Below, in pieces: positions 40,054-60,866 of a stretch of 64,000 bases of DNA. The position numbers and the translations under genes were made by a program. Every line of letters begins with the position of its first letter. Within the stretch, counting starts at the first letter, position 1. The stretch is taken from positions 558,001 to 622,000 of the forward strand of contig NZ_CP061205.1 of the NCBI RefSeq assembly GCF_015240255.1. The letters are read 5' to 3'. The DNA is from Kordiimonas pumila (GTDB taxonomy: Bacteria; Pseudomonadota; Alphaproteobacteria; Sphingomonadales; Kordiimonadaceae). The notes beneath the pieces were generated by a model. It ran no database searches. It saw only the letters and a list, made by a program, of their open reading frames with translations, and was not told where the DNA came from.

Positions 40054-40067
40054 ATGTGTTTCTGTCC

Positions 40068-40934: not shown

Positions 40935-41020
40935 AACAGAAACCTCTCTTGTTGTTGAAAGAACAGATGGAAGCCAAGAGCGATGCTCCGGGCTTCCCGC
41001 TGTGTTTCAGCGGGAGCGGT

Positions 41021-41530
41021 TCAGCCCTGCGGTGTGAAATGGAAGTGCGTCAGTGCAAGGGAAGTGGCAGTGAAATAAGAGGTTGCGGGCTTCTCAGGTT
41101 CCCATGGTTTTCGTTTAGATGGCACATCACCTTTCAGTTTGGGGAACATGTCGCCAATGACTGTGGCAATGTCGTGTTTGGTCTTCGCCCCTTTGGTTGC
41201 AAACGCATCCTGAATTTGATTGCGAGAATAGAAGTGAATCGGAAAACCTTGGTCGATGGCTGTCTCTGTCATTGCAGCAATCAACGTGTAAACACGAGAC
41301 CGCTGTTTCTTTTGACTGTGTGGAATGTCCTCTATGACGACGACATCAGGCTTCACTAAATTGAGCAATTTTACAAACTCGCGAAGACAAGCCATATTTT
41401 TATCTCCGGTTGCTCGTTTGAGACCCCAGGCAACAAGTGCCTTTGGGTTGTTTAAGACTGCATGGGATAGGCCAAATCCATCAGCGTAAACAGCGAGGAT
41501 TGTGCGCGGGCGTTTAATTTTCTGGAACAT
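41021..41530 (-). CDS. RuvC-like (RNase H fold) protein
   Basis: A 169-aa protein with a RuvC/RNase H-like layout: a first strand TILAVYADGFGLSHAVL, then GLKRATGDKN, a helix, and the second acidic strand VVVIEDIPH. The first strand carries Tyr where RuvC has Asp, with an Asp two residues later, so catalytic competence is doubtful. I prefer ATG at 41530; TTG at 41602 is in frame. Leftward, upstream of ardC; could process recombination intermediates. Confidence 0.7.
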   Translation of the reverse strand: MFQKIKRPRTILAVYADGFGLSHAVLNNPKALVAWGLKRATGDKNMACLREFVKLLNLVKPDVVVIEDIPHSQKKQRSRVYTLIAAMTETAIDQGFPIHFYSRNQIQDAFATKGAKTKHDIATVIGDMFPKLKGDVPSKRKPWEPEKPATSYFTATSLALTHFHFTPQG

Positions 41531-41752
41531 AGGAAAAGAACAATTATCTCGGCGTACTAGGGTACGCTGAGCATGTGTGTAAGACGATACCAGCCTGCGC
41601 AACGTGGAAGGTATCTGCGTAAGGATATAGCAGCCCTCTTGTACAACCTAGATAACAGGAAATGGTGACACTTTTGGTATCAAAACTGGGTATCTAGCAC
41701 CTTCCAATACCTGACGTATTCTTGGTGACATATTCGCGTAACCATCAAACGT

Positions 41753-43003: not shown

Positions 43004-43010
43004 CCTTCTT

Positions 43011-43190
43011 ATGGAACTTTCTAAGCAGCATATTGAAGCATTTAAGAGACTTCATGAACCTATCGGCGGGCTTCGCGAATACACTGATGAAGAAGTTGAA
43101 GAAATTGCCAATGACATTTCACGCTACTATCTCATCATGATCAAAATATTGGGGCGCAGCCCTCTTGAGGCCGGGAACGTGCGGAAGTAG
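43011..43190 (+). CDS. Small hypothetical protein
   Basis: A 59-aa helical, acidic protein (SKQHIEAFKRLHEPIGGLRE...), starting 7 nt after the ATPase gene and ending 65 nt before the recombinase start. No family is recognised. Its tight spacing on both sides suggests co-transcription with the ATPase and the second serine recombinase. Confidence 0.6.
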   Translation: MELSKQHIEAFKRLHEPIGGLREYTDEEVEEIANDISRYYLIMIKILGRSPLEAGNVRK

Positions 43191-43255
43191 CCCAGTAGTT
43201 GCCCACGACTGTCAAGGCGAAAGTTCTGCCGCTCGGCGGTATAATCAACATACGC

Positions 43256-44917
43256 ATGACTAATCACACACTGACAATTGGAGGCGTCAAATTTTGTCGC
43301 GTTTCCTCAAGGGAACAGGAAGAGACAGGGTACTCCCTCGATGCTCAAGATAAGGTTCTCAGTGAATATGCAGAGAAAAATAGGATAGATATTCGCAAGG
43401 CATTTCGCATTTCTGAGAGCGCGAGCGGAAAGCAGGAGCGCAAGACTTTTAGCGAGATGATGACCTATGTTCGCAGAAACCGTGTACGGAACATCATCGT
43501 TGAAACAACGGACAGATTGACGAGAAATTTCGCTGATGTGCCTGACATTGATAAGTGGGTGATGGGGGACGAACGCAATCAAATCCACCTCGTCAAAGAA
43601 GGGTGTATTCTTCACAAGAACTCCAAGTCCCATGAATGGTTCATGTGGCGAGTAAAAGTGGCAACGGCTGAATACTATGTGCGGCTTCTTTCCGAAAACG
43701 TCAAAAAAGGTCAGAAGCAAAAGATTGCTGAAGGATGGTTGCCGTCGCGGCCACGCCTTGGGTACAAATCGGTTGGTGAAAAACGGCACAAAAAGCACGT
43801 GCCACATCCTGCTATCGCACGACATATCCGCAGTGCGTTTGAATACTACAATAGTGGCGATTATTCTCTAAAACGCTTGGAGCATCTGCTCTATGATGCC
43901 GGACTAAGAGGTCAAAATGGCGGGCGGTTGCACGCCAGTAGAATTCATCGGCTGCTCTCTGATCCATTCTATTGCGGCTTTATGCGCTGGAAAGGCCAGA
44001 TATATCCGGGCAAACATGAACCACTGGTCAGCAAGCGCTTGTTTGACAGTGTCCAAAAGAAACTGAAACGCCCTACAAAGACACCCTATTACGTCAAGCA
44101 CAACCCGGTCTTTAAGGGAAAAATTCGCTGTTTGCACTGCGATGGACTTGTTACGTGGTATCTAAAGAAAGGCAACTTTTATGGCCACTGTTATAACCAC
44201 GGTGCGTCTAGGAAGTGTTCGCATAAGACCTGCATGCGCCAGGAACGGGTCGAGGAGCAACTTTTTCCAATATTTGAGTGTATTGCACCAAAAAATGAAG
44301 CCATGCTCCAGTACATCAGCGCTGTACAGAAAGACATGCGTGCCGAGGCGCAAAAGGGGGATGAGCGAGAACACTTACGGTTGGAAAAGTTGCTTGTGAA
44401 GGCGCGAAAAAGCCGTGAAAAATATTATGAAGCGAAGATCAATAGGGAAGTGCCAGCGGAATACTGTGACCAAAAGATTGCTGAGTTAAATACAGAAGAA
44501 GCGATGCTGGAATCATCGCTCGCTAATGCTACAACTGCCGATGAAGAAAAGCAGGAGGCGCAGAGGTTGCTATATCAATTAGCGTTCCAAGTGGCTGAAA
44601 TTTATCAGCGCGGTACGACGGAGGAGAAGCAAGATCTGTTGGCGATACTCTTTACGAACTTTAAGCAGGATGGGCGCAAGATTATAGTGGAATATACGCC
44701 AGCGGGCGCACATCTCATGAAGTGGATGCCGCGTCTAAATCAACATTACGAACTCCATAAAACCCGCATAAAATATGACTCTAATGGGGAAATTCTCTCC
44801 CCTTATCCTGTATTGCTCGCTTGGCAGTGTGAATTACGGAACCTTGATTGGATGGAAATTTTTCCGGTACCTGAGTGGACAATCAATTTAGTCAGAAAGA
44901 TGCTCCGACCAGAGTAG
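43256..44917 (+). CDS. Second large serine recombinase
   Basis: A 553-aa recombinase unrelated in detail to the one at the left end. Resolvase domain with catalytic Ser17 (KFCRVSSREQEETGYSLDAQ), TTDRLTRNFADV, a Recombinase domain (GYKSVGEKRHKKHVPHP, LLSDPFYCGFMRWKGQIYPG in part), a zinc ribbon IRCLHCDG near residue 290, and a coiled coil near 370-450. The frame is open to TTG at 43199, but homologous sequence begins near ATG 43256. It may belong to a nested element or an earlier integration; I could not identify its att sites. Confidence 0.92.
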   Translation: MTNHTLTIGGVKFCRVSSREQEETGYSLDAQDKVLSEYAEKNRIDIRKAFRISESASGKQERKTFSEMMTYVRRNRVRNIIVETTDRLTRNFADVPDIDKWVMGDERNQIHLVKEGCILHKNSKSHEWFMWRVKVATAEYYVRLLSENVKKGQKQKIAEGWLPSRPRLGYKSVGEKRHKKHVPHPAIARHIRSAFEYYNSGDYSLKRLEHLLYDAGLRGQNGGRLHASRIHRLLSDPFYCGFMRWKGQIYPGKHEPLVSKRLFDSVQKKLKRPTKTPYYVKHNPVFKGKIRCLHCDGLVTWYLKKGNFYGHCYNHGASRKCSHKTCMRQERVEEQLFPIFECIAPKNEAMLQYISAVQKDMRAEAQKGDEREHLRLEKLLVKARKSREKYYEAKINREVPAEYCDQKIAELNTEEAMLESSLANATTADEEKQEAQRLLYQLAFQVAEIYQRGTTEEKQDLLAILFTNFKQDGRKIIVEYTPAGAHLMKWMPRLNQHYELHKTRIKYDSNGEILSPYPVLLAWQCELRNLDWMEIFPVPEWTINLVRKMLRPE

Positions 44918-45040
44918 CGTGGCGTACAATTTACAATATGGTTAGAACCAGAATGGTTGAACGTGCTGGATAAAAGTATGGCCAAGTTAGAAGAGTGGAT
45001 GCGTGGACTATACCCCCCCAGCAACTCTCACTGTTTTGTT

Positions 45041-45595
45041 CTAACCTTTTTCTTCTGAGAAAAGGTGCGCATAGCCAGCCTTTTTTAATATTGTGAGGGC
45101 CTTTTGCTCTCGATCATTCTTTTTTGGGTCCGGGTCGGAGGCATAGGGAAACTTTGCCAGCGTTTGAATATAGTCAGGAGGTAGTTTGTGTTCCATCGCT
45201 CCAGCTAGTACGAGGGCGTGATACCAGCTATACGGCCTCAACCCTTCTACACATTTGTTGGCAATATAAGTTGATGTTGGTATGCACTTTTGATCAGTTA
45301 GGGACACAACCGTGAATGAATCATCACGAGCGTAACCTTCTGGAAAACCCTCCGCATCGTCCAAAGCGTCACGTTCACTCGTGTCAATTCGGAAGAGAAC
45401 TCCATACGCAATATCTGACATGTTGTTTGTTTTTAGCAAAGTACACTTACCAGAATTGTCGGCACTCTTTTTATCAAAGCAAAGAGTGTAATCGACGGCT
45501 TTGGCAATCCCAATAGCCATCGCGCTGGGACATCTCGCTTGTAAGCGTTGGCTCAACATATTTGAGCCGTAGGCGAAGTATTGGAATGAACTCAT
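45041..45595 (-). CDS. Gamma-glutamylcyclotransferase-like protein
   Basis: A 184-aa protein with the GGCT/AIG2 fold: FAYGSNM at residues 7-13 binds substrate and E82 in DDAEGFPEGY matches the catalytic Glu. Such enzymes release 5-oxoproline from gamma-glutamyl peptides. It is divergent from the PHP-SMC ATPase gene and shares its AT-rich composition, so both may have arrived together. Confidence 0.85.
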   Translation of the reverse strand: MSSFQYFAYGSNMLSQRLQARCPSAMAIGIAKAVDYTLCFDKKSADNSGKCTLLKTNNMSDIAYGVLFRIDTSERDALDDAEGFPEGYARDDSFTVVSLTDQKCIPTSTYIANKCVEGLRPYSWYHALVLAGAMEHKLPPDYIQTLAKFPYASDPDPKKNDREQKALTILKKAGYAHLFSEEKG

Positions 45596-45705
45596 ATTTT
45601 AATTGTGCATTACCCAGACAATTTGTCTAGGATATTTGAACAATAGTGCATGATAGGGAATGTTTGTTATTATAAAGGTATTCAGATTTATTGGGGGAAA
45701 TCATT

Positions 45706-48700
45706 ATGAGTATCGTCAAAGAAACATGTGGTTCAGTGTGGAGACGCTGGGACTTGCACTTACATTCTCCGGGAACAAAACTCTCTGATGCATATGGCGG
45801 AGAAGTCGATGAGAATGGCAATACAGATGATGAAACTTGGGATGCTTATCTGAAAGCCTTGGAAGATTCGGAAGTCCAAGTTTTTGGGATAACCGATTAC
45901 TTCTGCTTTGACTCATATTTTGAGACCATCAAGAGGTACAAAAAAAAGTTCCCCGAAGGACAAAAGGTATTTTTTCCAAATATTGAGTTCAGGCTTACTG
46001 ATAACATTAGTTCAAGCGGTAAGCATGTGCATACCCATGTTATTTTTGATCATGATCCCGCAGTTTGCAATGAACGTAAATTCTCAGAATTTTTGACTGC
46101 ACTTACGACACATATATCTCAAGGTGACGTAGATGTTAAATGTAGCAACCTCTCCGGCAAGCAGTATGAGGCAGCAACCATCAGCATGAGAGACTTAAAA
46201 AAGGCTCTCAAGGATACTTTTGGTAATGAAAATTTGTATTTGATTGTTACCGCAGCGAATAACGATGGATTACGGATGGCTGATACACAATCTAGCCGTA
46301 GCCTTTCCATTTCAGATGAACTTGATAAAGCTAGTCATGCGTTCTTTGGCTCAGGAATTAATACAAATTACTTTTTGCAGACTACTCGATACGAAGATGA
46401 TGCTGAAGCATTGCCGAAGCCGGTATTTAGTGGCAGTGACGCCCACTCTTTTGATGACCTGAAACGGTTAACTGGTGATGAGCGGAACTTCCCACCAACA
46501 TGGGTTAAGGCGGATACGACTTTTAGAGGGTTACTTCAGACACTTTATGAGCCGAAGGCACGAGTATACATTGGAGATACTCCAAGTGTTTTAGTGCAGC
46601 AGTCTCGTGAAGCCACTCGTTTTATTTCAAAGTTAGAAATTTCTCCAATAGCTGGGTATTCAGGTGCAAATGGCGTTTGGTTTGAAAATGTGTCCATTGA
46701 GTTTAATCCTGAATTGACGGCTGTCATTGGTAATAAGGGCAGTGGTAAAAGTGCTATCGCTGATATCATTGCTCTTTTAGGAGATTCTCGACAAGAATCG
46801 AATTTCTCTTTTCTTGCAAATAGCCGTGGGAATAAGAAATTCCGCACTAAGGGTTATGCAGAAAACTTTTTAGGAAAACTCACGTGGAAAAATGGTACGG
46901 AGCAGGAACGGGCCTTGGATTTGTCTATAGACCCGACCAGTCCGGAGAGAGTCAAATACCTCCCTCAGAATTATTTTGAAACACTTACAAACGAGATAGA
47001 GGTTAATGACTTTCGTAGGGAAATTGAGGACGTAGTTTTTTCCCATGTTGAAGATTCAGACCGGATGGGTAAATCTAGTTTTGCGGACTTAGAGGATTTC
47101 AAGACCACTCAGGCAAAACAAGATATCAGTTCCTTGAAAGTAAAAATTCGTGAATTGAACATCGAGATAGTTGAATTGGAGAAAAAGGCTGCCCCATCCT
47201 TTAAGAAAAGCATAGAAAAACAACTTAAAGCTAAAGAAGATGAGCGCCATGCGCTCGAACAATCAAAGCCTAAGGAAGTCCCAAAGCCCGCTGAGGAAAC
47301 CGAGGAACAAAGGGAAATAAATACAGAACTAACTGTAGCAGGGGATGTACTCAGTGGTATTGTACTGAAAGGCAGGGCGGCTGCAAACCAATTGTCTTCA
47401 CTGAAGGTCAACCGCCAAAAATTAGTAGACTTAAAGGAATCTGTTTCCAGTTTGAGTTCTTCGTTAACTGTAAGGCGTGCAGAGATTGTATCGCTCTGTA
47501 ATGAACTTCAATTAGATGCTGATAACATTTTCAAATACAATATTGATACATCCAGCATAGATAAAAAAATCAGTGATGTGTCCCAAGAGATAGGCGCTTT
47601 AGTAAAGGACAATAATCTCACGATTGATGAAAAAACTGACTTTCAAAAAATATCTAGTATTCCAGATTTACACGCTGCACATAAGTTTGTTGAAACTAAA
47701 ATTAAAGCATTAAAAGAAACCCTTTCTGCGCCTCACCGAAAATACCAGACGTATGTGCAAAGTGTGAAAGAGATTTCTGCAAAATTACAAGAGTTAAAAG
47801 GCGACCCTGCATCTCCTCAGCTTGGAACGATTAATTATTTCAAGGCCCAGTTGTCTGAAATTGAAAACGTACTTACACAAAAAATTAAAGATAAAGTTGC
47901 AGAGAGAGAAACTCTCTCAAAAGGCATCTTTGAAGCAAAAACCAAAGTAAGGTCGTTTTATGAAGGATTAAAAAAGCGTGTTGAAACACGTCTTGCAGAC
48001 ATTAACACTGATGAGTTTACCGTTACGATTGATGCCTCGTTTGTGCCGACGGGTGGATTTGAGGAAACCTTCTTCCACTTTGTTAATCAAGCCGTTGTAG
48101 GCGAGTTTCGAGGAACAGAAGCGGGTAGAAAAAAATTACAAAGCATCATGGCAGACGTTAATTGGAATGATGCGGATAGCATTTTGGTGTTTATCAATGA
48201 GGTTATTGAGACCCTGAAAAAACACCCTTTTGAGGCACAAGTTAAAAACATTAAAGAATTGTATGACTTCCTTTTTTCTTTTGAGTTTTTTGATGCGAAG
48301 TATGAGTTACGCCTTGGCGGTAAAAACTTGAACCAGTTATCTCCCGGCGAGAAAGGTCTCTTACTTCTAGTCTTTTACCTGCATTTGGATAAGGAGAAAA
48401 CGCCGCTCATAATAGATCAACCAGAAGACAATTTAGATAACGATAGTATATTTTCAGTTCTTGCTACATGTATTAGAGAAGCTAAAAAGTCTCGGCAGGT
48501 AATTCTTGTAACACATAATCCTAACCTTGCTGTTGGTGCTGATGCAGAACAGATTTTATTTGTAAAGTTAGAGAAGCATAAAAATTACAAGTTTCTATAT
48601 GAGAGTGGTGCTATTGAGAATCCTAAAACGAATGGGCATATCGTAAAAGTTCTTGAGGGGTCACGGCCAGCCTTTGTTCAAAGGCGACTTAAATACCACA

Positions 48701-48708
48701 TACGATAA
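45706..48708 (+). CDS. PHP-domain SMC-like ATPase (TrlF-like)
   Basis: A 1000-aa protein combining an N-terminal PHP phosphoesterase domain (metal ligands in WDLHLHSPG near residue 16-22, HTHVIFDHD, and SGSDAHSF near 245) with an ABC/SMC-type ATPase. Walker A GNKGSGKS is at 342-349, a long coiled coil occupies about 470-720, the signature LNQLSPGEKG is near 876, Walker B PLIIDQPEDN near 902, and the H-loop His in VTHNP. This architecture is often found in defence islands. ATG at 45706 follows GGGGGA. The gene is visibly AT-richer than its surroundings. Confidence 0.88.
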   Translation: MSIVKETCGSVWRRWDLHLHSPGTKLSDAYGGEVDENGNTDDETWDAYLKALEDSEVQVFGITDYFCFDSYFETIKRYKKKFPEGQKVFFPNIEFRLTDNISSSGKHVHTHVIFDHDPAVCNERKFSEFLTALTTHISQGDVDVKCSNLSGKQYEAATISMRDLKKALKDTFGNENLYLIVTAANNDGLRMADTQSSRSLSISDELDKASHAFFGSGINTNYFLQTTRYEDDAEALPKPVFSGSDAHSFDDLKRLTGDERNFPPTWVKADTTFRGLLQTLYEPKARVYIGDTPSVLVQQSREATRFISKLEISPIAGYSGANGVWFENVSIEFNPELTAVIGNKGSGKSAIADIIALLGDSRQESNFSFLANSRGNKKFRTKGYAENFLGKLTWKNGTEQERALDLSIDPTSPERVKYLPQNYFETLTNEIEVNDFRREIEDVVFSHVEDSDRMGKSSFADLEDFKTTQAKQDISSLKVKIRELNIEIVELEKKAAPSFKKSIEKQLKAKEDERHALEQSKPKEVPKPAEETEEQREINTELTVAGDVLSGIVLKGRAAANQLSSLKVNRQKLVDLKESVSSLSSSLTVRRAEIVSLCNELQLDADNIFKYNIDTSSIDKKISDVSQEIGALVKDNNLTIDEKTDFQKISSIPDLHAAHKFVETKIKALKETLSAPHRKYQTYVQSVKEISAKLQELKGDPASPQLGTINYFKAQLSEIENVLTQKIKDKVAERETLSKGIFEAKTKVRSFYEGLKKRVETRLADINTDEFTVTIDASFVPTGGFEETFFHFVNQAVVGEFRGTEAGRKKLQSIMADVNWNDADSILVFINEVIETLKKHPFEAQVKNIKELYDFLFSFEFFDAKYELRLGGKNLNQLSPGEKGLLLLVFYLHLDKEKTPLIIDQPEDNLDNDSIFSVLATCIREAKKSRQVILVTHNPNLAVGADAEQILFVKLEKHKNYKFLYESGAIENPKTNGHIVKVLEGSRPAFVQRRLKYHIR

Positions 48709-48800
48709 TTTACTTAACACTCTTGAGAATCAAAACTGTTTTTAAGCAATCAAAAGGATTTTGATACTAACTCATTCGCAAACCAAAAATTACACTTTAC

Positions 48801-48819
48801 AGCGCCCCCTAAGGGCGCT
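48801..48819 (+). terminator. Hairpin after the PHP-SMC gene
   Basis: AGCGCCC (48801-48807) pairs with GGGCGCT (48813-48819) around a 5-nt loop, followed by CTTAT. It lies about 90 nt after the stop of the ATPase gene and before the small membrane-protein gene at 48875. Confidence 0.6.
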
Positions 48820-48874
48820 CTTATAGTCACACTCACACCGTGAACGAATTTTCTTTTGCTGAACGGAATGAGTC

Positions 48875-49018
48875 ATGAAACATCCTGTAAAATTGATCTA
48901 TGAAGGCCCAGCCTACCTTATTGTGCTTGGTGTTGCCTTTTTGTCTGCCGTTATCTTGCTTGCAGTCGGTGTCCCAGTCGAGGAGTTATTGACCCTTTTT
49001 CAGGGGCTGGTGGGCTGA
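48875..49018 (+). CDS. Small single-pass membrane protein
   Basis: A 47-aa ORF: short charged N-terminus, one hydrophobic helix (YLIVLGVAFLSAVILLAVG), short acidic tail. It is 64 nt upstream of the VirD4/HerA-like ATPase gene on the same strand. Small membrane proteins often accompany coupling-protein-type ATPases, but this one is called on hydrophobicity and position only. Confidence 0.55.
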   Translation: MKHPVKLIYEGPAYLIVLGVAFLSAVILLAVGVPVEELLTLFQGLVG

Positions 49019-49082
49019 TGCTAGTTTTGTATCTTTTCATGTCATCTAGCGGACGATGTAGGTTGCTACGACAATTGCTTTA

Positions 49083-50264
49083 ATGCTCCGCCAATCACTA
49101 GACATTTCATATTTCGCCCGTAGCAACTTTCGAGGACAGCTCAAGCGGTTCGGTATTCGTCAGGCGGACAGACATTTCCACTCACTGGTGCTAGGTAAGA
49201 CAGGAACAGGGAAGACCACCTGCATAGAAAACCTGATAAGGCAGGATATAGACGCCTTTCGAGGGCTGGCTCTCATAGACCCACACGGAGACCTTGCCGA
49301 GCGTATTGCCGCCGCTATACCTCCATGCAGACAACAAGACCTTATATACTTTGATGCAGGAAACCCACAGCAACCCTATGGGTATAATCCACTCCGCTAT
49401 GTACGACCAGAACAACGTCCACTGGTGGCTTCTGGTGTACTTGAAGTATTCAAAAAAATGTGGGGAGGCTCAGGAAACAGTTGGGGCGTCAACATGGAAC
49501 ACCTACTCCGTAACTGTATTCTCGCTCTCCTAGAAGTACCCGAAAGCACCTTTGCAGACATCCCACGCATACTGACCGATACCAAGTATCGTGCAGCAGT
49601 CATTCCAAAGATTACCAACCAGCAAGTACGGACATTCTGGGAACGAGACTTCAAGGCTGGCGGCTTTGACCGTCCTGCTGCAATCGGTCCGGTACTAAAC
49701 AAGGTGGGGGCGTTTCTTTCAGACCCTATGCTTCATAGGGTGCTTACGAAACCAGAAACCCCACTCTCATTCCGCTCCATTATGGATGAAGGCAAAGTGT
49801 TAGTGGTTAACTTGAGCAAAGGACGTGTAGGCGAGGATGCCTCATCACTCTTGGGTAGCCTTATCGTCTCTATGCTCACCATAGCAGCATTCAGTAGGGC
49901 GGACATACCAGAAGAAACCCGTAGACCCTTCCACCTCTTTATAGACGAGTTCCAGAACTTCAGCACCAAAAGCGTTGCTAATGCTGCATCAGAACTCCGC
50001 AAGCAACGGCTCTCTCTCACTGTTGCCAGCCAGTACCTTGAAGGTATCGATACCGACATACGGAATGCCATACTGGGGAATGCAGGAACGCTTATATCCT
50101 TCAGGGTGGGAGCGAAGGATGCTCCGTACCTTGCCCGTGAGTTTTACCCTGACATCACACAGGAAGATTTGCTGAACCTGCCGAATTATAACGCTGTTGT
50201 TCGGTTAATGATTGACGGGTGTCCCGCGAGGCCGTTTGGGGCAGCAACGGACGGCCGTTGTTAA
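49083..50264 (+). CDS. VirD4/HerA-like DNA-pumping ATPase
   Basis: A 393-aa ATPase of the type IV coupling-protein/HerA class. Walker A GKTGTGKT at residues 38-45, the LIDPHGDLAERI segment, Walker B HLFIDEFQNF near 283-292, and a SQYLEGIDTDIRNAILGNAG sensor region. No membrane helices of its own; the preceding 47-aa protein may supply an anchor. Its stop overlaps the convergent small exported-protein gene by 4 nt. A second, larger ATPase of this class lies at 52257. Confidence 0.9.
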   Translation: MLRQSLDISYFARSNFRGQLKRFGIRQADRHFHSLVLGKTGTGKTTCIENLIRQDIDAFRGLALIDPHGDLAERIAAAIPPCRQQDLIYFDAGNPQQPYGYNPLRYVRPEQRPLVASGVLEVFKKMWGGSGNSWGVNMEHLLRNCILALLEVPESTFADIPRILTDTKYRAAVIPKITNQQVRTFWERDFKAGGFDRPAAIGPVLNKVGAFLSDPMLHRVLTKPETPLSFRSIMDEGKVLVVNLSKGRVGEDASSLLGSLIVSMLTIAAFSRADIPEETRRPFHLFIDEFQNFSTKSVANAASELRKQRLSLTVASQYLEGIDTDIRNAILGNAGTLISFRVGAKDAPYLAREFYPDITQEDLLNLPNYNAVVRLMIDGCPARPFGAATDGRC

Positions 50265-50590
50265 TTTGTGCATACCTTTGCCTGCAACTGTAGTTTTGAC
50301 GCTTCTCTTTTAATCCAGGCAGTATCTGGGTCATCTCCATCACATTTATGATAATTTCCGTGCATGCGTACTGAATAAAGCGGGCCATTAGATTTGCATA
50401 TAGTTTTGAAACTTTTAGTTCTGCGATCGATACATATTATCCCGCTTTTATTGTTGAGTTTATCTATTGCTTCCAGAAGAGCATTCTCAATTGTTGCCCC
50501 TTTACCCGTTCTCCATTCTCCTGCATGAACGATAGGGGTGACCAATATAGCGCACAGTAATGATACAGTTGATGTGATTTTAAGTTTCAT
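50261..50590 (-). CDS. Small exported cysteine-containing protein
   Basis: A 109-aa protein with a clear signal peptide (cut near IVHA/GEW). The mature 86 residues contain four cysteines (IICIDRR, TICKSNG, YHKCDGDD, AKVCTN), suggesting two disulfides in the periplasm or outside. No family recognised. It is last in a leftward run of three exported-protein genes headed by the nuclease gene. Confidence 0.7.
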   Translation of the reverse strand: MKLKITSTVSLLCAILVTPIVHAGEWRTGKGATIENALLEAIDKLNNKSGIICIDRRTKSFKTICKSNGPLYSVRMHGNYHKCDGDDPDTAWIKREASKLQLQAKVCTN

Positions 50591-50623
50591 AAAAAACCTC
50601 CTATGATGTTTTTGATTGTAAGA

Positions 50624-50908
50624 TTATCGGGTGACTTGTTTCCGAAACGTCTCCACCATGCCATCTGACACATCGGATGGATAGCATAAGGGGCTATACC
50701 CACCGGGCTTGGAATACGCACTCCGCTTCCCACACATACTTCCATTAGACGCTCTGTTGTATGGACAGGGGCAGTTGCCCGGATAGTGTGATATAGATTG
50801 CTGAATCAAAACCTGACGTATTTCGTCATCGGTCAGCTTTTTCTCGTCAGTAATACTGGGTATAGAAAACAGACAAATCGAAAGCGTAGCTATTAGTATG
50901 CGTTTCAT
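50624..50908 (-). CDS. Small exported CPC-motif protein
   Basis: A 94-aa protein with a signal peptide and a mature domain carrying NCPCPYNRASNGSMCG and GGYSPLCY. I know this pattern from small exported proteins often found beside secreted DNA/RNA nucleases, as here (11 nt after the nuclease gene). Function unknown; a nuclease partner or disulfide-stabilised binding module is possible. Confidence 0.75.
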   Translation of the reverse strand: MKRILIATLSICLFSIPSITDEKKLTDDEIRQVLIQQSISHYPGNCPCPYNRASNGSMCGKRSAYSKPGGYSPLCYPSDVSDGMVETFRKQVTR

Positions 50909-50919
50909 TATGTATCTCC

Positions 50920-51699
50920 CTACGGACAGCCAAGGTCACTGTTGAGGTCACCGTTTGCCCATGTAGCAGACGCTTCTGGGAATATGTCGAGACCACTCAG
51001 GGTTTCCACATCTGAAAGTGGCTTGATGTGGTCGCAGTAGTTGGCGTTCCGGTCAGTGTCCTGATCAAACACAAAGGCAGTCATTGCTCCTGCTTCTGTT
51101 GCAACCACCTTGAAGTATCCAGTGGGAACAGTGTGTGTCTCATCTGCCTTGGGTAGCGTCATCTGGTTTTCGTTCGGGTCGTAGAGCGGCCCTGTCACCA
51201 CATAGATTTCCTTCCGTTTGTACGCTACATCCCTAACCGCACTTTCCAGTGCCACCCACGCCCCTTGGTTGAGGTCGCTTTTCTGGGGTGTAATGTTGGA
51301 GAGAATATTGGTAGACCGCCAGAATACCGTGCCTGCAAAACTTGCCAGTGGTGCTTGGTGTCCACGGTCTGTCTTGAGGTCACCGAAGGCAGACTTGTAA
51401 TCGTCTGGTTCGAGGGTCTCTGCATCATCCAAAAGCGGGTCTGCTTCCCAGTCCCTATTCAGAGACTTTGATGTACCAATAGTCTCAGAGGTCACACGGT
51501 ACGCCACCCAGTCTGCAAACTTGGTGGTGTCATTGGATGACAGAGCAAAGATTTCTCTGACGATAAGGTCATTACTCTGCGGTGTGCCGGTTGGACACCC
51601 CTTCAGGCAATGGACAATATGGATTTCACCGGCAAAGGCGGTGGTAGAGAGTATCAGTGTAATAAACGCCGATACGAGGCATGAAAAAGCACGTCGCAT
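50920..51699 (-). CDS. Secreted DNA/RNA non-specific endonuclease
   Basis: A 259-aa exported nuclease of the Serratia NucA type. Signal peptide cut near AFAG. The active-site motif DRGHQAPLASF places catalytic His at 114, and SNITPQKSDLNQGAW supplies the Mg-binding Asn. It heads a leftward three-gene exported cluster between the two VirD4/HerA-type ATPase genes. Possible roles: nutrient DNA breakdown, competition, or nicking linked to DNA transfer; none is shown. Confidence 0.92.
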   Translation of the reverse strand: MRRAFSCLVSAFITLILSTTAFAGEIHIVHCLKGCPTGTPQSNDLIVREIFALSSNDTTKFADWVAYRVTSETIGTSKSLNRDWEADPLLDDAETLEPDDYKSAFGDLKTDRGHQAPLASFAGTVFWRSTNILSNITPQKSDLNQGAWVALESAVRDVAYKRKEIYVVTGPLYDPNENQMTLPKADETHTVPTGYFKVVATEAGAMTAFVFDQDTDRNANYCDHIKPLSDVETLSGLDIFPEASATWANGDLNSDLGCP

Positions 51700-51848
51700 G
51701 GATAGTCCCCCAATCTAAAAGTTGTTCACGACTCACAACTCCAATGAAGTAATCATACATATTTATTGCCCTCAGGGTAGTATTCTTTGTACAGTTCCCG
51801 TGCAGTTTTGAGTCCACACCTTAACTGATGCACATAACGGGGGTTATC

Positions 51849-52250
51849 ATGGAACTAATTGTACGGCGTGGCCAGAAGTCTGGCATGCTCAGCTCAAAGA
51901 TCATTTTTACACTCAGTGTACGGGCAAAGCTTACCGAGGAAGAGGCGGCAAACGTACAGAAATACAAACTGAGCAGCACCGTTCTCTATAAAAATTATGA
52001 GATTGAAGATCGTGGCAGTGGCCTTCTGGGGCTTGCATCACGAATGGCTATCAAGTCACTCAACACACACATCACGGTTGGTAGTCTTATGGAAGGGATT
52101 AACCTTGAATGTAAGGATGTGGTTGAGATGCTTGCCATAGAAGAGCAAATCATCGAAGCCAGTGAACTCTTCAAGCAAGTGCTTGATGCATCCACTCTGT
52201 TTGGTGGTGAAGAGGTCATATCGTTTGACGGGGCTGTCGCTGCTGGGTAA
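51849..52250 (+). CDS. Hypothetical protein coupled to large ATPase
   Basis: A 133-aa soluble protein: an N-terminal beta-rich half (MELIVRRGQKSGMLSSKIIF) and a helical C-terminal half. No family recognised. ATG at 51849 follows GGGGG; the frame is open from 51828. It ends 6 nt before the 905-aa ATPase, so the two are almost certainly one operon and may form a complex. Confidence 0.7.
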   Translation: MELIVRRGQKSGMLSSKIIFTLSVRAKLTEEEAANVQKYKLSSTVLYKNYEIEDRGSGLLGLASRMAIKSLNTHITVGSLMEGINLECKDVVEMLAIEEQIIEASELFKQVLDASTLFGGEEVISFDGAVAAG

Positions 52251-52256
52251 CAGCTC

Positions 52257-54974
52257 GTGGCAAAGTCATCGAACAACCTCAATATACCAAACGGCGTATG
52301 GTATATCCTCGCCGCACCCTTTGTGTTGGTGTGGCGGGGGATAGCGTCCCTCTTTCATCTTGAGGTATCGGAATATGAACGAACCCATGCCTTGTACCAA
52401 GAAGCACTCGCTCGGTATGAGGCATCACCCTTTGCAACACATGATCGCAATGAGTTCATTGTAGACTGTGTGGTGGACGCAGCTCGGCTTGCAGATGTAC
52501 ACTCGCCAGCCATTTCTCTTGAAATCTACACCCTCATCGAACTGCTGACCCATGAAGAATACTTTTGGGATGCCCCTACGTTCACATGGTCAGAGTACCA
52601 AACGCTCGCCGAACGGGCCAATATGCGGGATCGTTATCGTGCCTGTATCCGTTTCTATGAGCATGGGGAAAAACAGATAATTCAGTGGCGTTCCTTCGTG
52701 GTGTACATGGCTGCGGCACTTCTAAAAAGTTTGCCTGAAGATGCTCTATCGAAAACATCAGGCGATGACGACCTGCCGGTTTTCACTGTCCCATTAGTAA
52801 CTTTGTTTGACGACCCTGTTGATGTGATACATGGAGTATTCTTTAGTTTCTTCACTGCCGAAATGCTCGATAGCGGCCTATTCTCCACTACCATTGAACG
52901 CCTCACAGACAATGTATATGAACTATCTGGTGTGGAGCGACACACACAAAAGCCGCCAACAAAGAAACTCCTGACACCGGCAGACTGTCCTCAGAAATCC
53001 ACCACAGAGTTAGCCCAGACCTTCTTTGGTGGCACAGCCCTTGAACTGTTTTTAATGTACCCGCTGCCGTTCCCCATTCCAGAGGACGCACGTTTTGAAC
53101 ATTGCCATATTCTCGGTGGCACCGGGCATGGCAAAACACAACTGCTTCAACTGTTAATCTATCAGGACTTGCTCAAGGCAGCAGAGGATGGGCGGTCAGT
53201 GATTGTGATAGACAGCCAAGGCGACCTCATTCGTACCCTGTCCCACTTGGCACTCTTTGCACCAGATACCGAAGGAAGCTTGCAAGACCGCTTTGTCCTT
53301 GTAGACCCAAACGATGTCGAGTTTCCGATGGCTCTCAATATGTTTGACTGCAACAAGGGTCGTTTGGACGGGTATTCGCTTGCTGAACGGGAGAAGCTGC
53401 TCAATGGCATCATATCCCTCTATACCTATATGTTCGGCGCACTCCTTGGTGCAGAGCTGACCGATAAGCAGGGGGTCATCTTCAAATACCTTGCTCGCTT
53501 GATGTTGGTGATACCAAACGCCACCATTCACACCATGCGAGAACTCATGGAGGACGCTGCATCGTTTCGGAAGTATCTGCCGCAGCTAGACCCCACGACC
53601 CGCCAGTTTTTTGAGACACAGTTTTTCAGCAAGTCCTTTGCCCCTACCAAGCAGCAGATTGCCCGTCGTCTGTGGAGTGTACTCTCGCATACTACGCTTG
53701 ACCGCATGTTCTCCCAGAAGGAAAGTAGCCTAGACCTCTTCGATGCCATGAATAGCGGCAAGATTATCCTCATCAACACGGCTAAAGATTTGCTGAAGTC
53801 TGACGGTAGCCAAGTGTTAGGGCGGTTCTTCATCAGTATGATTGTTCAAGCCGCAATGGAACGAGCAACCATACCCGCAGATGAGAGGACACCCTGCTTT
53901 GTCTATGTCGATGAAGCCCATGAATACTTTGATGAGAATGTCAGCGACCTCCTGATACAAGCCCGCAAGTACAAGGTATCCCTCACCTCGGCACACCAGA
54001 CGCTCGACCAGCTAAGCCCGTCTCTACGCTCCACCATGATGACCAACACCAGCACGAAACTCATTGGTGGGGTCAGTGCCAAGGATGCAAAAGCATTCTC
54101 TGAAGAAATGCGGTGTAAGACGGAATACCTGCAAGGTATCCGCAAGCACAAAGACGAGACAGAGTTTGCCTGTTGGATTAGAAACGTAACGGGAAAGCCC
54201 GTTACCCTCTATGTACCACTGGGAGCAGTAGAGCGGCAACCAACTCTCTCTGGTGAAGAATACACCGCCCTCATTGACGCAAACCGTGACACATACTGCG
54301 TACCGCTCACTGAGGCATACAGTGTCACAGAAACCGCTGTTACTGAGACGGTAGAGCCAGAACAGGCAGAAAAGCACACCGCATACACCCCAGAACCCAC
54401 GCCGCCTAAGCCGTCACCAGACACCCCCAAGCGGAAACGCAGAACCATTCCCATAGAACCCGCACCAATGGGGCAAGGTGGGCAGAAACACATCTACATG
54501 CAGACTTTGATTAAACGGTGTGCCGAGGAACGGGGCTGGCGAACGGTTATAGAGAAACCAACACCTGACGGAAAAGGACGGATAGATATATCCCTTGAGA
54601 AAGGGGAAGAGAAAATAGCCTGCGAAGTCTCTGTAACCACTACCGTAGAGCATGAACTGGGGAATGTACTAAAGTGTCTCTCTGCCGGTTATGAGCAGAT
54701 ACTGGTGGTGGCAGAAGAAAAGAAACGGGTCAAAGCCCTGCAAGATTACATATCTTCACAGTTAGAAGGTGGGGAAGTGCAGAAAGTGTCCTTCCTGCTG
54801 CCTGTTGAGGCACTGTCTTTTCTGGATGAACAGACCGTTGAACCGGAAGAAACCACGGTGCGAGGGTATAAGGTGAAGGTATCTCGTTCTACTAAGACAG
54901 CAGGTGATGCGGAAGAACGGAAGAAAGCGATTGCGAAGGTGATTGGGAGGTCTTTAGTTAAAAAAAAGTATTGA
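52257..54974 (+). CDS. VirD4/TraD-like ATPase with C-terminal nuclease-like domain
   Basis: A 905-aa protein. One N-terminal membrane segment (VWYILAAPFVLVWRGI), a helical region to about 280, then a coupling-protein ATPase: Walker A GGTGHGKT at about 287-294, VIDSQGDLI, Walker B FVYVDEAHEYF near 548-558. A proline-rich linker (about 705-735) leads to a C-terminal domain with GRIDISLEKGEEKIACEVSV (Asp ~776, Glu ~790), which resembles PD-(D/E)XK folds but has Ser where Lys is usual. It could pump and process DNA. The start is GTG. Confidence 0.87.
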   Translation: MAKSSNNLNIPNGVWYILAAPFVLVWRGIASLFHLEVSEYERTHALYQEALARYEASPFATHDRNEFIVDCVVDAARLADVHSPAISLEIYTLIELLTHEEYFWDAPTFTWSEYQTLAERANMRDRYRACIRFYEHGEKQIIQWRSFVVYMAAALLKSLPEDALSKTSGDDDLPVFTVPLVTLFDDPVDVIHGVFFSFFTAEMLDSGLFSTTIERLTDNVYELSGVERHTQKPPTKKLLTPADCPQKSTTELAQTFFGGTALELFLMYPLPFPIPEDARFEHCHILGGTGHGKTQLLQLLIYQDLLKAAEDGRSVIVIDSQGDLIRTLSHLALFAPDTEGSLQDRFVLVDPNDVEFPMALNMFDCNKGRLDGYSLAEREKLLNGIISLYTYMFGALLGAELTDKQGVIFKYLARLMLVIPNATIHTMRELMEDAASFRKYLPQLDPTTRQFFETQFFSKSFAPTKQQIARRLWSVLSHTTLDRMFSQKESSLDLFDAMNSGKIILINTAKDLLKSDGSQVLGRFFISMIVQAAMERATIPADERTPCFVYVDEAHEYFDENVSDLLIQARKYKVSLTSAHQTLDQLSPSLRSTMMTNTSTKLIGGVSAKDAKAFSEEMRCKTEYLQGIRKHKDETEFACWIRNVTGKPVTLYVPLGAVERQPTLSGEEYTALIDANRDTYCVPLTEAYSVTETAVTETVEPEQAEKHTAYTPEPTPPKPSPDTPKRKRRTIPIEPAPMGQGGQKHIYMQTLIKRCAEERGWRTVIEKPTPDGKGRIDISLEKGEEKIACEVSVTTTVEHELGNVLKCLSAGYEQILVVAEEKKRVKALQDYISSQLEGGEVQKVSFLLPVEALSFLDEQTVEPEETTVRGYKVKVSRSTKTAGDAEERKKAIAKVIGRSLVKKKY

Positions 54975-55155
54975 CAGGTGGAATCGTAAGATGCGAATCT
55001 AGAATCGAACGAATCAGAAATGCTTCGATTCTTTATGGCAAGTGTGGTTCATTTGCTTGAAATGTCTTTGTAAATTGCTTTGTTTTGTGTTACACGCCAC
55101 GCTTTCGAGCTGAGAAATGTCTTAATTTTTATCAGCCAAAACTTGAGAACATGAG

Positions 55156-55389
55156 ATGAAAAAGGCGATCACTACAAAATTTTCCAGACTTGTTGGAAAC
55201 ATGTTTTTGGATACTACTTCTAGTAGGGTGGAGCGTGTTCAAAGGAAACTGTACAACAGCCAAAGGGGTGTTGTCAGCAGGTTTTCTCGTGGTAATGCCA
55301 GCATTCAGAATGGTCGATATCTCACGAGAGAAGACCTTGAAGCCGAGCGCGCACAACGCGACAAATATTACCGAGAACATACAGCGTAA
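55156..55389 (+). CDS. Small repeated protein, copy 1
   Basis: A 77-aa basic protein whose last ~45 residues (VQRKLYNSQR..., GRYLTREDLEAERAQR, KYYREH) recur in the gene at 56180. A 60-bp stretch is identical in DNA between the two. No named family. It is 15 nt upstream of the 211-aa membrane-anchored protein gene, probably the same transcript. Confidence 0.7.
   Translation: MKKAITTKFSRLVGNMFLDTTSSRVERVQRKLYNSQRGVVSRFSRGNASIQNGRYLTREDLEAERAQRDKYYREHTA
55299..55358 (+). repeat. 60-bp direct repeat, copy 1
   Basis: Identical over 60 bp to 56317-56376, with weaker similarity extending about 65 bp upstream and 20 bp downstream. The two copies, 1,018 bp apart in direct orientation, bracket the 211-aa gene and could delete or amplify it by homologous recombination. 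Confidence 0.95.
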
Positions 55390-55404
55390 ATTTGGCAGCT
55401 CTTT

Positions 55405-56040
55405 ATGGATTTTGATTTTAAGAAAAGTGTGGAGGAATATCTTGTTCACCTTTCTGAGGTCGAAGGTTACGTAAAAGAGGCGGAAAGAATACGCAATCAA
55501 ACTGTTATACCGGCTATTAACGAGTTGAGGTATGCAGGACGGTATATGTCAGAAATATACCTTGCATTGATATCTGGTGTACACTCAGATAATTCTGATG
55601 ATGTGAAGGTGGTAATCAGAGATAAGCTTCGGGATGCAAACTTTTCTTGCTTGAAAGCTAAACATGACGTCATGGATGCTGTGCGGGGTCAATTACATGC
55701 GGATTATATGGTTTTAAGGAAAGAGTTTACGCCTAGTGTGGTCAGAAAAACGCTTCCAAAGCACGATGATATGCTTGCTTTAGGTAAAGAAATTGACCGT
55801 TGTCAAACAGATTCCCGGAAAGATCGGGATAATATTGATGAACATTATGGCGATATGTTCAAAAACTATTATCCAAAAGTTCTAGAATATTTATCGCTCA
55901 TGAGTGACCCATTAACCATTGAGAGTTTGCATTCTGAGTGTAAAAGCAATCGTCGTAAAAGTTTGTACACTGCGGCAGGTATTTTTTTGGCTGCCTTGGG
56001 TTTGTTAGTCGGTGTTGCCCAATTGCTTAAAGGCCCATAA
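55405..56040 (+). CDS. Tail-anchored protein of unknown function
   Basis: A 211-aa, mostly helical, charged protein with a single hydrophobic helix at the very C-terminus (SLYTAAGIFLAALGLLVGVAQ in part), so likely tail-anchored in the inner membrane with its bulk in the cytoplasm. No family recognised. It sits between the two copies of a small repeated gene and shares the AT-rich composition of the region; a defence effector or immunity role is speculation. Confidence 0.7.
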   Translation: MDFDFKKSVEEYLVHLSEVEGYVKEAERIRNQTVIPAINELRYAGRYMSEIYLALISGVHSDNSDDVKVVIRDKLRDANFSCLKAKHDVMDAVRGQLHADYMVLRKEFTPSVVRKTLPKHDDMLALGKEIDRCQTDSRKDRDNIDEHYGDMFKNYYPKVLEYLSLMSDPLTIESLHSECKSNRRKSLYTAAGIFLAALGLLVGVAQLLKGP

Positions 56041-56179
56041 CCAATTGATAAAAAACAATAAATATTATATGATAAAGACTGAACAATATGCTTTTTAAGA
56101 CGCAAATAGAAGGCGTGTGTTCTTGAAGTGTTCTTTGTTTTGACTATATAATGATATGCAAGCAATGGAGGACTTACTG

Positions 56180-56407
56180 ATGTATGGACTACATAAACTT
56201 CAGATGATTATAGGTGGCTTGTTTGGCAAAGGTATATCCGCTAAGTCTAAACGTGTTCAAAGGCAACTCCACAATAGTCAAAGGCTTATTGTCAGTAGGC
56301 TTGCTCGTGGTAATGTCAGCATTCAGAATGGTCGATATCTCACGAGAGAAGACCTTGAAGCCGAGCGCGCACAACGAGAAAAATATTATCGAGAACACCC
56401 TGCTTAG
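56180..56407 (+). CDS. Small repeated protein, copy 2
   Basis: A 75-aa paralogue of the protein at 55156. The N-termini differ; the C-terminal GRYLTREDLEAERAQR-KYYREHPA region is nearly identical. GGAGG 8 nt before the ATG at 56180 decides the start; the frame is open from 56156. It is convergent with the XRE gene at the right end of element A. Confidence 0.7.
   Translation: MYGLHKLQMIIGGLFGKGISAKSKRVQRQLHNSQRLIVSRLARGNVSIQNGRYLTREDLEAERAQREKYYREHPA
56317..56376 (+). repeat. 60-bp direct repeat, copy 2
   Basis: Exact 60-bp match to 55299-55358, inside the second small gene. The identity is higher than in the flanking parts of the same genes, pointing to recent duplication or gene conversion. 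Confidence 0.95.
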
Positions 56408-56437
56408 TCACTATATAGAAACTATACAACCTGTCTG

Positions 56438-56875
56438 CTAGACAGGTTGTTTTATATTGAACCACTTTCCCACAATCCCATTTATATTCACAGCATTTGG
56501 GTCAATTAAGACCTGACCATGCTCTCGCCTAGCCAAAGAATGCTCATCTATTCCAAGCTCATTCGCCAGCTCTTTAATGCTAACACCATGCCGTAAACGA
56601 TATGCCTTAATCTTCTCCCCAAGCGTTACTGGCTCTGGAAACGGTTCATATCCAAGGAATGAGATGATAGCCGGATAATGCTTGATACTTGGCTGTGCAT
56701 CACCCTTTTCCCAGTTCATAATCGTGAAGTTTCCCACCCCAATGAGCTTCCCAACGTCCTTTTGCCGTAGTTCCAGTTCCATACGCCTTTTGAGCATATG
56801 CTCTCCAATGGTCTTAGGGTGTTTTGGGTAAGTCTTTGGTTTTTCTATAGAAAGACTGAAATTGCAAAATGGCAA
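56438..56875 (-). CDS. XRE-type double-HTH regulator at right end of element A
   Basis: A 145-aa protein with two Cro/C1-type HTH units: residues ~22-60 (GEHMLKRRMELELRQKDV) and ~80-115 (GEKIKAYRLRHGVSIKEL). The family starts near YPKHPKTIGEH and commonly accompanies recombinases. The only start in frame before that region is TTG at 56875, inside the att right arm; ATG occurs only at codon 27. In the circular form this frame continues upstream into the recombinase gene. It may control the recombinase or report integration state. Confidence 0.85.
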   Translation of the reverse strand: MPFCNFSLSIEKPKTYPKHPKTIGEHMLKRRMELELRQKDVGKLIGVGNFTIMNWEKGDAQPSIKHYPAIISFLGYEPFPEPVTLGEKIKAYRLRHGVSIKELANELGIDEHSLARREHGQVLIDPNAVNINGIVGKWFNIKQPV

Positions 56876-56886
56876 CGAACCCCTGT
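56862..56886. other. attR of element A (junction with element B)
   Basis: Right arm TTGCAAAATGGCAACGAA (56862-56879) overlaps the core GAACCCCTGT (56877-56886), followed by comM sequence CGCTGTGGG. The arm contains an ATG in frame with the downstream comM fragment, so the fragment reads MATNPC where comM has AAMNPC. The same half-site occurs again at 60353-60377. Confidence 0.9.
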
Positions 56887-57387
56887 CGCTGTGGGTATTT
56901 GGATGATGCTGCGATGGCGTGTGGTCGTGCGCCCCGGTGCGCGGCGGAGTATCAGGCGAAAATATCAGGCCCCTTGTTTGACCGGTTTGATATATTTATG
57001 GATGTACCGGCGGTATCTGCCGCTGACTTATCACTGCCATCCAGCGCAGAACCGTCGGCAGTGGTTGCCGCTCGTGTGGCAGTGGCCCGCGCCCGGCAAA
57101 GGAGGCGCGCTGAAGCTGAAGGCAAGGAAGATGTCTTTCTGAATGCCCATGCTGACGGGGCATACCTGCAAGCAATTGCTGCGCCTGACGCAGGCGGCAA
57201 ACAGATGCTTGAGAAAGCAGTTGATCACTTCCGCCTGTCTGCGCGCGGGTATCACCGCGTACTGCGTGTTGCCCGCACCATTGCAGACCTTGCAGAGAGC
57301 GAAACAGTACACAGCGATCACATCGCTGAAGCCCTCGCCTATCGCCGCATAAACCCACAAGCTGCAAGTATAAGAGCGGTGGGATAA
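56869..57387 (+). pseudogene. comM: comM 3' end, copy 1 (left end of element B)
   Basis: The frame from ATG 56869 gives 172 aa of the ComM C-terminal third: NPCRCGYLDDAAMACG, GPLFDRFDIFMDV, then the helical ARGYHRVLRVARTIADLAES segment. The coding sequence is undamaged but separated from its 5' part by element A. Compared with copy 2 it differs in the PSSAEPSAVVAARVAVARAR region and has a 4-residue longer end. Joined to 33225 it would give an intact ComM of about 513 aa. Confidence 0.92.
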
Positions 57388-60120: not shown

Positions 60121-60366
60121 TTAACGAAAAGTCATGTTATACCCAAGAAAGTCTATAATAGCTGGATAATGTTTGGCGCTTGGTTTGGAGTAGCCCTTCT
60201 CCCAGTTCATGATTGTTCTGGCTGATATATTCACGAGCTTCTCAACATCCTTTTGGCGTAACTCCAGTTCCATACGCCTTTTGAGGATATGTTCCCCGAT
60301 TGTGGTGGGGTGTTTTGGGTAAGGTGTTGGCTTTTCTACAGAAAGCCTGAAATTGTAAGATGGCAA
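60121..60366 (-). pseudogene. Truncated XRE regulator at right end of element B
   Basis: An 81-aa frame homologous to the first half of the element A regulator (YPKHPTTIGEHILKRRMELE, then MNWEKGYSKPSAKHYPAII), diverged mostly at silent or conservative positions. The second HTH is missing: the frame stops after LGYNMTFR, 10 nt from the RTX stop codon, so a deletion fused this end to the RTX gene. Its only early start is TTG at 60366 in the att arm, as in element A. Confidence 0.85.
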
Positions 60367-60377
60367 CGAACCCCTGT
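60353..60377. other. Second attR-type site (right end of element B)
   Basis: Arm TTGTAAGATGGCAACGAA (60353-60370) and core GAACCCCTGT (60368-60377), followed by comM CGCTGTGGG. It differs from the attR of element A at two arm positions. The inner GGCAACGAA half of the palindrome is conserved. Confidence 0.88.
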
Positions 60378-60866
60378 CGCTGTGGGTATTTGGATGATGC
60401 TGCGATGGCGTGTGGTCGTGCGCCCCGGTGCGCGGCGGAGTATCAGGCGAAAATATCAGGCCCCTTGTTTGACCGGTTTGATATATTTATGGATGTACCG
60501 GCGGTGTCGGCCGCTGACTTATCACTGCCGTCAACCGGCGAACCGTCATCTGTTATTGCCGCCCGTGTAGCAGCGGCGCGCGAGCGCCAGCACGGCCGCG
60601 CTGAAGCTGAAGGCAAGGAAGATGTCTTTCTGAATGCCCATGCTGATGGGGCATACCTGCAAGCAATTGCCGCGCCTGACGCAGGTGGCAAACAGATGCT
60701 TGAGAAAGCTGTTGATCACTTCCGCCTGTCTGCGCGCGGGTATCACCGCGTACTGCGTGTTGCCCGCACTATCGCTGACCTAGCGGGCAGCGACACCGTC
60801 ACCCAACCCCACATCGCCGAGGCCCTCGCCTACCGGCGCATCACACCGCAGGTTGCTTCAAGATAA
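60360..60866 (+). pseudogene. comM: comM 3' end, copy 2 (probable native end)
   Basis: The frame from ATG 60360 gives 168 aa of the ComM C-terminus, ending AEALAYRRITPQVASR. It abuts backbone sequence leading to the TonB receptor, so it is probably the host's original 3' end. The ATG comes from the element arm and could allow translation of this fragment alone, though no good ribosome site precedes it. Confidence 0.9.

What the first reader, a model, noticed from the sequence alone, without database searches (positions are those of the whole stretch)
56438..56886. Integration splits a continuous recombinase-XRE reading frame
On the minus strand the recombinase reads ...INRGS-L into attL; the XRE ORF reads GGT-TCG-TTG-CCA out of attR in the same frame. 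In the joined circle the frame is unbroken: 499 recombinase residues followed by all 145 XRE codons, about 644 aa. In the integrated state the recombinase instead ends in 11 antisense-comM residues and the XRE has only a TTG start inside the att arm. The XRE copies of elements A and B differ largely at silent or conservative positions right up to the att arm, so that stretch is translated. This would let the element sense whether it is integrated, or change recombinase direction preference, without an extra gene.
Basis: partly seen in the sequence, partly recalled or inferred. Interest (0 to 1): 0.85.

Follow-up and report, generated by a model that had tools for sequence, protein, structure and literature searches.

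The report
Recombinase gene cut by its integration
A mobile DNA element carries its docking site inside its own recombinase gene, so that inserting into the chromosome cuts a DNA-binding tail off the enzyme; relatives suggest this is a real, conserved arrangement, but what the lost tail does is untested.

Summary
Joining the two ends of element A (33223-56885) at the shared TG gives one open frame of 644 codons: 499 of a large serine recombinase, then 145 of a double XRE-type HTH module; the joined flanks give an intact comM frame. It looks like more than chance: two further comM elements with both ends found (G1118, its ends on two contigs; G1426) are also in frame, in another codon phase. 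Unsplit recombinase-XRE genes occur in viral contigs (one frame across the junction in 6 of the 8 loci where it can be judged, the two query loci included) and in named phage Harrison, whose linker holds a strong palindrome. Codons beside the att core look selected as protein, and only 1 of 10 XRE copies has an ATG before its HTH. Against: 7 of 10 XRE copies at att-like ends have no recombinase partner that I found; one viral copy is out of frame. The principle is known from phages Mx8 (integrase) and BPs (repressor); a serine recombinase losing an XRE tail was not found in the papers searched. State sensing or directionality control remains inference.

The parts
33223..56885 (.). Element A, from the central TG of attL to that of attR, 23,661 bp, inserted in comM
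   Evidence: Shared core GAACCCCTGT at both ends; flanks join to one comM frame of 513 codons including the stop
33179..34711 (-). Large serine recombinase as it stands in the integrated state, 510 aa; reads through attL into antisense comM for its last 11 residues
   Evidence: ORF list; Pfam Resolvase and Recombinase
33223..33224 (.). attL central TG
56438..56875 (-). XRE module with two HTH_3 stretches, 145 codons; the 3' part of the recombinase gene in the predicted circle
   Evidence: HTH_3 with 2 stretches; in frame with the recombinase when joined
56884..56885 (.). attR central TG
32188..33222 (+). comM 5' part, cut by element A
   Evidence: Pfam Mg_chelatase and ChlI; joined frame
56869..57387 (+). 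comM 3' part, copy 1; completes comM when element A is absent (frame shown from its ATG inside the att arm)
60139..60376 (-). XRE copy B with att arm and core; has a stop after the first HTH; no recombinase at the other end of unit B
60360..60866 (+). comM 3' copy 2, abutting XRE copy B

Best explanation
In its circular form element A carries a single gene for a large serine recombinase whose C-terminus continues through a linker into two XRE-type HTH domains. The attachment site attP lies in the linker codons. Integration into comM therefore cuts the gene: the recombinase keeps its catalytic and DNA-binding core but ends in a few target-derived residues, and the XRE module is left at the other end of the element, 23.7 kb away, without a convincing start codon. 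Shown by sequence: the frame continuity, the att halves and restored comM, recurrence in two more comM elements, unsplit relatives, and protein-like constraint beside the att core. Inferred, at about 0.4: the full-length protein is the form that enters a new cell and integrates, its tail adding DNA binding (to att arms or to its own promoter), and losing the tail on integration changes or lowers recombinase activity, so that the form of the enzyme reports the state of the element.
For: 644-aa joined frame, only one of three frames of the attR half open. G1118: comM halves join to MNPCPCGYLGH and the recombinase to the XRE, 678 aa. G1426: both ends on one contig, 596 aa. A crosses the core in one codon phase, the other two in another, and recombinase and XRE agree in all three. 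Unsplit genes: L064, L065, L082, L083, L084 and phage Harrison, 695 aa, with a 17-of-20 palindrome in the linker. Constraint: pS 0.67, pN 0.17 over the 33 codons after the crossover between G1118 and G1426, not seen in the off-frames. No shared start codon. The recombinase frame also crosses the insertion edge without its own stop in L025 and L026.
Against: Seven of ten XRE copies at att-like ends have no recombinase partner that I found. L058 has the frame offset at the junction; L024 ends with its own stop and no XRE; L085 shows no XRE before its contig ends. The pooled test on seven distant copies is weak (0.61/0.34 against 0.52/0.39 and 0.45/0.43). attP palindromes of G1118 and G1426 do not exceed background. 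G1118's two ends lie on different contigs. No expression, circle or activity data.
Confidence: 0.82

Rival explanations
1. The fusion is real, but the split has no regulatory role. attP happens to lie in a tolerant linker beside the recombinase gene; both forms of the enzyme work alike and the XRE is simply lost or decays after integration.
For: B's XRE has a stop after the first HTH and so has G1426's; many orphan copies; in the seven viral fusions no palindrome marks the junction; no activity data.
Against: The linker and XRE keep protein-like constraint; split arrangement in 3 of 3 complete elements and a candidate linker attP in the distant phage Harrison; the Mx8 precedent, where the altered integrase changes in specificity (PMC6070905).
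Confidence: 0.35
2. The XRE is a separate regulator with its own start (a TTG in the att arm, or in A the ATG at codon 27), sitting at the end of the element; its frame agreement with the recombinase is chance or a relic.
For: A and B share a TTG in the att core with AGGGG four bases before it, and A has an ATG at codon 27; 7 of 10 copies occur without a recombinase that I found.
Against: No start codon at one place is common to the copies; in G1118 the first possible start is a TTG at codon 17, although the residues before it are conserved; 3 of 3 complete elements in frame, about 1 in 27 by chance; unsplit fusions exist.
Confidence: 0.1
3. The XRE tail works like a built-in recombination directionality factor: the fused form permits excision-type reactions, the short form only integration-type ones.
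For: Engineered fusion of a serine integrase with its directionality factor controls direction (PMC5737554, title and start of abstract seen).
Against: The fused form is the one a circle makes on entering a cell, and it has to integrate. No directionality-factor family appeared among the matches of the XRE, though such factors are diverse (recalled).
Confidence: 0.08

Closest known systems
Myxococcus phage Mx8 integrase (attP within int)
   Same: attP lies within the integrase coding sequence, and integration gives the gene a new 3' end; a review says the integrase is not inactivated but changed in specificity and calls it a molecular switch (PMC6070905, passages)
   Different: Here the enzyme is a large serine recombinase and the part removed is a recognisable double XRE-type HTH module; the nature of the Mx8 tail was not examined here
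Integration-dependent immunity of mycobacteriophage BPs
   Same: attP inside a reading frame; integration shortens the protein and changes its behaviour (PMC4557955, abstract and passages)
   Different: In BPs the cut protein is the repressor and the lost tail is a degradation tag; here it is the recombinase and the lost tail is a DNA-binding module
Integrase of Paenibacillus phages Harrison and Paisley
   Same: Resolvase, Recombinase, Zn ribbon and two HTH regions in one 695-aa protein in Harrison; 36% identical to L084 along most of its length; palindrome in the linker
   Different: Whether integration splits it is unknown; its HTH part is divergent
Cassette chromosome recombinases (CcrB, CcrC) and XisF
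   Same: Best NCBIfam matches of the element A recombinase
   Different: All far below the curated cut-offs (129.9 against 900 bits for CcrB)

Membership tests
Large serine recombinase | Resolvase catalytic domain followed by a Recombinase domain | tested here: met
   PF00239 and PF07508 over their cut-offs
Large serine recombinase | Zinc ribbon in the C-terminal part | tested here: inconclusive
   PF13408 not reported for element A, but C306, C308, C323 and C326 are invariant in five relatives
Large serine recombinase | Short non-identical att sites with a common central dinucleotide, attP an imperfect palindrome (features recalled) | tested here: met
   A: 16 of 20 arm positions, 0 of 22 background windows reach it; weak for G1118 and G1426 (13 of 20; 3 and 5 of 22 reach it)
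Mx8-type integration-altered integrase | attP inside the integrase coding frame | tested here: met
   3 of 3 complete elements
Mx8-type integration-altered integrase | Integration gives the integrase a new C-terminus | tested here: met
   Target-derived ends in window A, L023, L025, L026 and G1426
Mx8-type integration-altered integrase | The altered enzyme behaves differently | not testable with these tools
   Needs recombination assays
Integration-dependent immunity (BPs type) | attP inside the repressor gene, with the short form as the active repressor | tested here: not met
   The cut frame is the recombinase; the HTH module has no separate gene start in the predicted circle
XRE-type HTH protein | HTH_3-type domains | tested here: met
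   HTH_3 with two stretches

The most novel reading that the evidence does not exclude
A family of serine recombinases carries its attachment site between the enzyme and a DNA-binding tail, so that each integration cuts off the tail. The circle makes a tailed enzyme fitted to integration, the chromosome makes only a tail-less one, and excision restores the tail: a one-gene switch for the state of the element, spread over proteobacterial elements and, if its linker palindrome is attP, a Firmicutes phage.
Probability: 0.35. Interest if true: 0.82.

Novelty: new variant of a known kind. Interest (0 to 1): 0.7.

Why it matters
If true, directionality or activity control of a serine recombinase would be built into the position of its own attachment site. 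That is directly testable with standard two-site recombination assays, and useful because serine integrases are widely used tools whose directionality is a central question. It would also extend the principle seen in Mx8 and BPs to an integrase with a detachable DNA-binding module.

Tried and rejected
Plasmids: the recombinase alone and the viral fusion L065 each hit the limit of 5000 records, all below 60% identity; of the 15 records listed the longest matches (Roseomonas, residues 2-596 of 629 at 26%) were checked for one record, and Pfam shows no HTH in that protein. Three XRE queries gave one weak HTH regulator (Tepidibacter) with no recombinase among the 8 annotated features around it, and otherwise nothing. 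Phages: the XRE gave only Rac dicA; the viral fusion L084 gave Harrison and Paisley among 4 records covered to 80%, while the related Acetoanaerobium phage integrase (546 aa) has no HTH. G399, a relative inserted in a glycosyltransferase gene, could not be completed: a glycosyltransferase piece on another contig did not join cleanly and the genome has no XRE match. L025 ends before its second end. A palindrome test with 13-nt arms missed the wider spacing found in Harrison and was redone with 20-nt arms. An AlphaFold model of the L084 fusion was poor (mean pLDDT 51, pTM 0.35) and is not used. Viral scans found no relative and scan 54 only L058 again. In one search the script's printed residue aligned to M27 is off by one for four copies; I use only its list of start codons, with the sequences.

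Full report
What is there. The window lies in a 4.04 Mb single-contig genome. Element A sits in comM between a TG at 33223 and a TG at 56884. On the minus strand a large serine recombinase (Pfam Resolvase and Recombinase) reads through attL without a stop and ends in 11 residues of antisense comM. At the other end an ORF of 145 codons with two HTH_3 stretches opens in the att arm; its frame continues 40 codons into antisense comM with no start codon. Joined at TG, the two make 644 codons (499 + 145) in one frame. Joining the chromosomal flanks gives one comM frame with MNPCRCGYL and a single stop at its end. The joined attP has 20-nt arms that match at 16 of 20 positions; 0 of 22 windows of the recombinase gene reach that.

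Is it more than chance. In A the three frames of the attR half stay open 23, 148 and 12 codons, so the recombinase had about a one-in-three chance to enter the right one. I looked for other complete elements. Recombinase relatives are rare. At E up to 1e-60 only the own genome matched among 396 of the order and 398 of the phylum, and the own plus one more (G399) among 385 of the class. The genome collection gave one MAG locus, L023, and the viral contigs two, L024 and L025. At E up to 1e-80 the MAG itself and one more (G1426) matched among 369 genomes of its class.

Second element. L023, a betaproteobacterial MAG (genome handle G1118), has the recombinase reading through the end of the comM 5' half. 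The XRE profile gave one match in that genome, an XRE abutting the comM 3' half on another contig. Joined at TG, comM reads FQLVGAMNPCPCGYLGH and the recombinase continues into the XRE, 678 aa; the other frames of that half stay open 16 and 13 codons. The two contigs could in principle belong to two stacked elements, as in the window, so this case is slightly weaker.

Third element. In G1426 both ends lie on one contig, about 35 kb apart. Joined, comM reads FQLVATMNPCPCGYLGH and the recombinase continues into the XRE, 596 aa; the other frames are open 16 and 0 codons. This XRE stops after the first HTH. A crosses the core in one codon phase, G1118 and G1426 in another; in all three the recombinase and XRE phases agree. 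By frame alone this is about 1 in 27, and A is the case that raised the idea.

Open ends elsewhere. The recombinase frame also crosses the insertion edge without a stop of its own in L025 (in comM) and in L026 of G399 (in a glycosyltransferase gene), whose second ends were not found. L024, 46% identical, stops on its own with no XRE after it and no XRE match in its record.

Unsplit genes. A viral-contig scan with the XRE profile gave L058, where a serine recombinase runs into the XRE with the frame offset inside the conserved PKTIG/DHI motif. Its relatives L064 and L065 have no offset. A scan with these two as query gave 10 loci, the query loci and L058 among them. In 5 (L064, L065, L082, L083, L084) one open frame holds recombinase and XRE; L064 and L065 run off their contigs. 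L087 is open at the junction but broken upstream; L058 is offset; L085 shows no XRE before its contig ends; L086 ends before the junction and L088 is a fragment. So 8 loci can be judged: 6 in one frame at the junction, 1 offset, 1 without XRE. Pfam finds Resolvase, Recombinase, Zn ribbon and two HTH_3 stretches in L082, L083 and L084, 671-681 aa. For L064, cut by its contig end, no HTH passed the threshold; for L065 one HTH_3 stretch did. Phage Harrison, a named phage with a complete genome record, has a 695-aa integrase with the same order of domains, 36% identical to L084 over residues 3-655. Its linker holds a palindrome with 20-nt arms, 17 of 20, where 24 background windows reach at most 13; I read it as a candidate attP. 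In the seven viral loci tested no such palindrome stands out, and in L082, L083, L084 and L087 further ORFs follow the fusion, so nothing shows that integration cuts the gene there.

Translation next to the core. Between G1118 and G1426 the 33 codons from the crossover have pS 0.67 and pN 0.17; read in the other frames 0.22/0.33 and 0.11/0.34. Between A, B and C the 26 codons before A's first ATG have 0.31/0.11, off-frames 0.17/0.17 and 0.13/0.16; B and C are nearly the same there, so this is close to one comparison, and A/C alone is 0.23/0.17. The seven copies of the other phase pooled, G1118 and G1426 among them, give only 0.61/0.34 against 0.52/0.39 and 0.45/0.43 over 16 codons. The arm is also fixed as DNA: GTTGCCATTTTGC is the same in A and G620 but read in different frames. 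Of 10 copies only A has an ATG before the HTH; in G1118 the first possible start is a TTG at codon 17. So the residues nearest the core seem to be translated by reading in from upstream, which in the circle is the recombinase.

What speaks against. Seven of the ten XRE copies (B, C, G620, G447, two in G756, G398) have no recombinase partner that I found; the own genome has only the one in A, and a search of G620, G447, G756 and G398 gave only weak matches in two of the four (best 1.2e-20, 29%). B, C and G620 have a comM 3' copy where the recombinase would be. I take these as relics in which comM was restored and the recombinase end lost, but an independent life of the XRE is not excluded. The palindromes of G1118 and G1426 do not exceed background: 3 and 5 of 22 windows reach them.

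How it may work. Shown by sequence: one gene in the predicted circle, two pieces after integration. Inferred: since a circle entering a new cell can make only the tailed protein, the tailed form must be able to integrate; the tail, two HTH domains, probably binds att arms or a promoter; and the chromosomal form, without it, is changed in activity. The neutral-split rival is not excluded and I give it 0.35.

Known relatives. A review says that Mx8 attP lies within int, that integration creates a new 3' end, and that the integrase is altered and not inactivated (PMC6070905, passages). In BPs integration shortens the repressor (PMC4557955, abstract and passages). A recombinase-XRE fusion split at attP was not found in the listings of searches. 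Of the papers in those listings I read passages of two (PMC6070905, PMC4557955) and saw the rest only as listings; the library holds open-access papers only.

Noticed in passing
window 56869-60866 and G000:C1:614869-643745: comM is a layered site: after element A come three comM 3' copies, two of them behind XRE-att ends (units B and C). comM looks restored before A arrived, as if older elements lost their recombinase end and left the XRE end behind.
   Followed up: partly
L047 (G620:C239), 5310-9818: The same comM-restoring layout in another genome: an intact comM frame, a small resolvase, an XRE with att arm, and a displaced comM 3' copy.
   Followed up: partly
L046 (G756:C21) 5404-5835 and 3999-4414: Two XRE copies of this family beside trypsin-like protease genes, one in frame with a truncated protease 5' part (299-aa open frame), one frame-shifted. 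Protease named by eye.
   Followed up: no
G000:C1:3936473-3936577 (L007 about 7260-7590): An XRE fragment next to a short comM C-terminal fragment far from comM: a stray relic or an old site.
   Followed up: no
window 45691-48708: Element A carries a TrlF family AAA-like ATPase (NCBIfam 700 bits, cut-off 350), with distant matches to anti-phage defence models.
   Followed up: partly
window 34874-35614: A LuxR-type regulator (recognised by eye from its C-terminal sequence, no search run) lies directly upstream of the recombinase on the same strand.
   Followed up: no
window 43199-44917: A second, different serine recombinase (572 aa) inside element A.
   Followed up: no
window 55234-55388 and 56252-56406: A 155-nt direct repeat, 88% identical, near the attR end of element A.
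   Followed up: no
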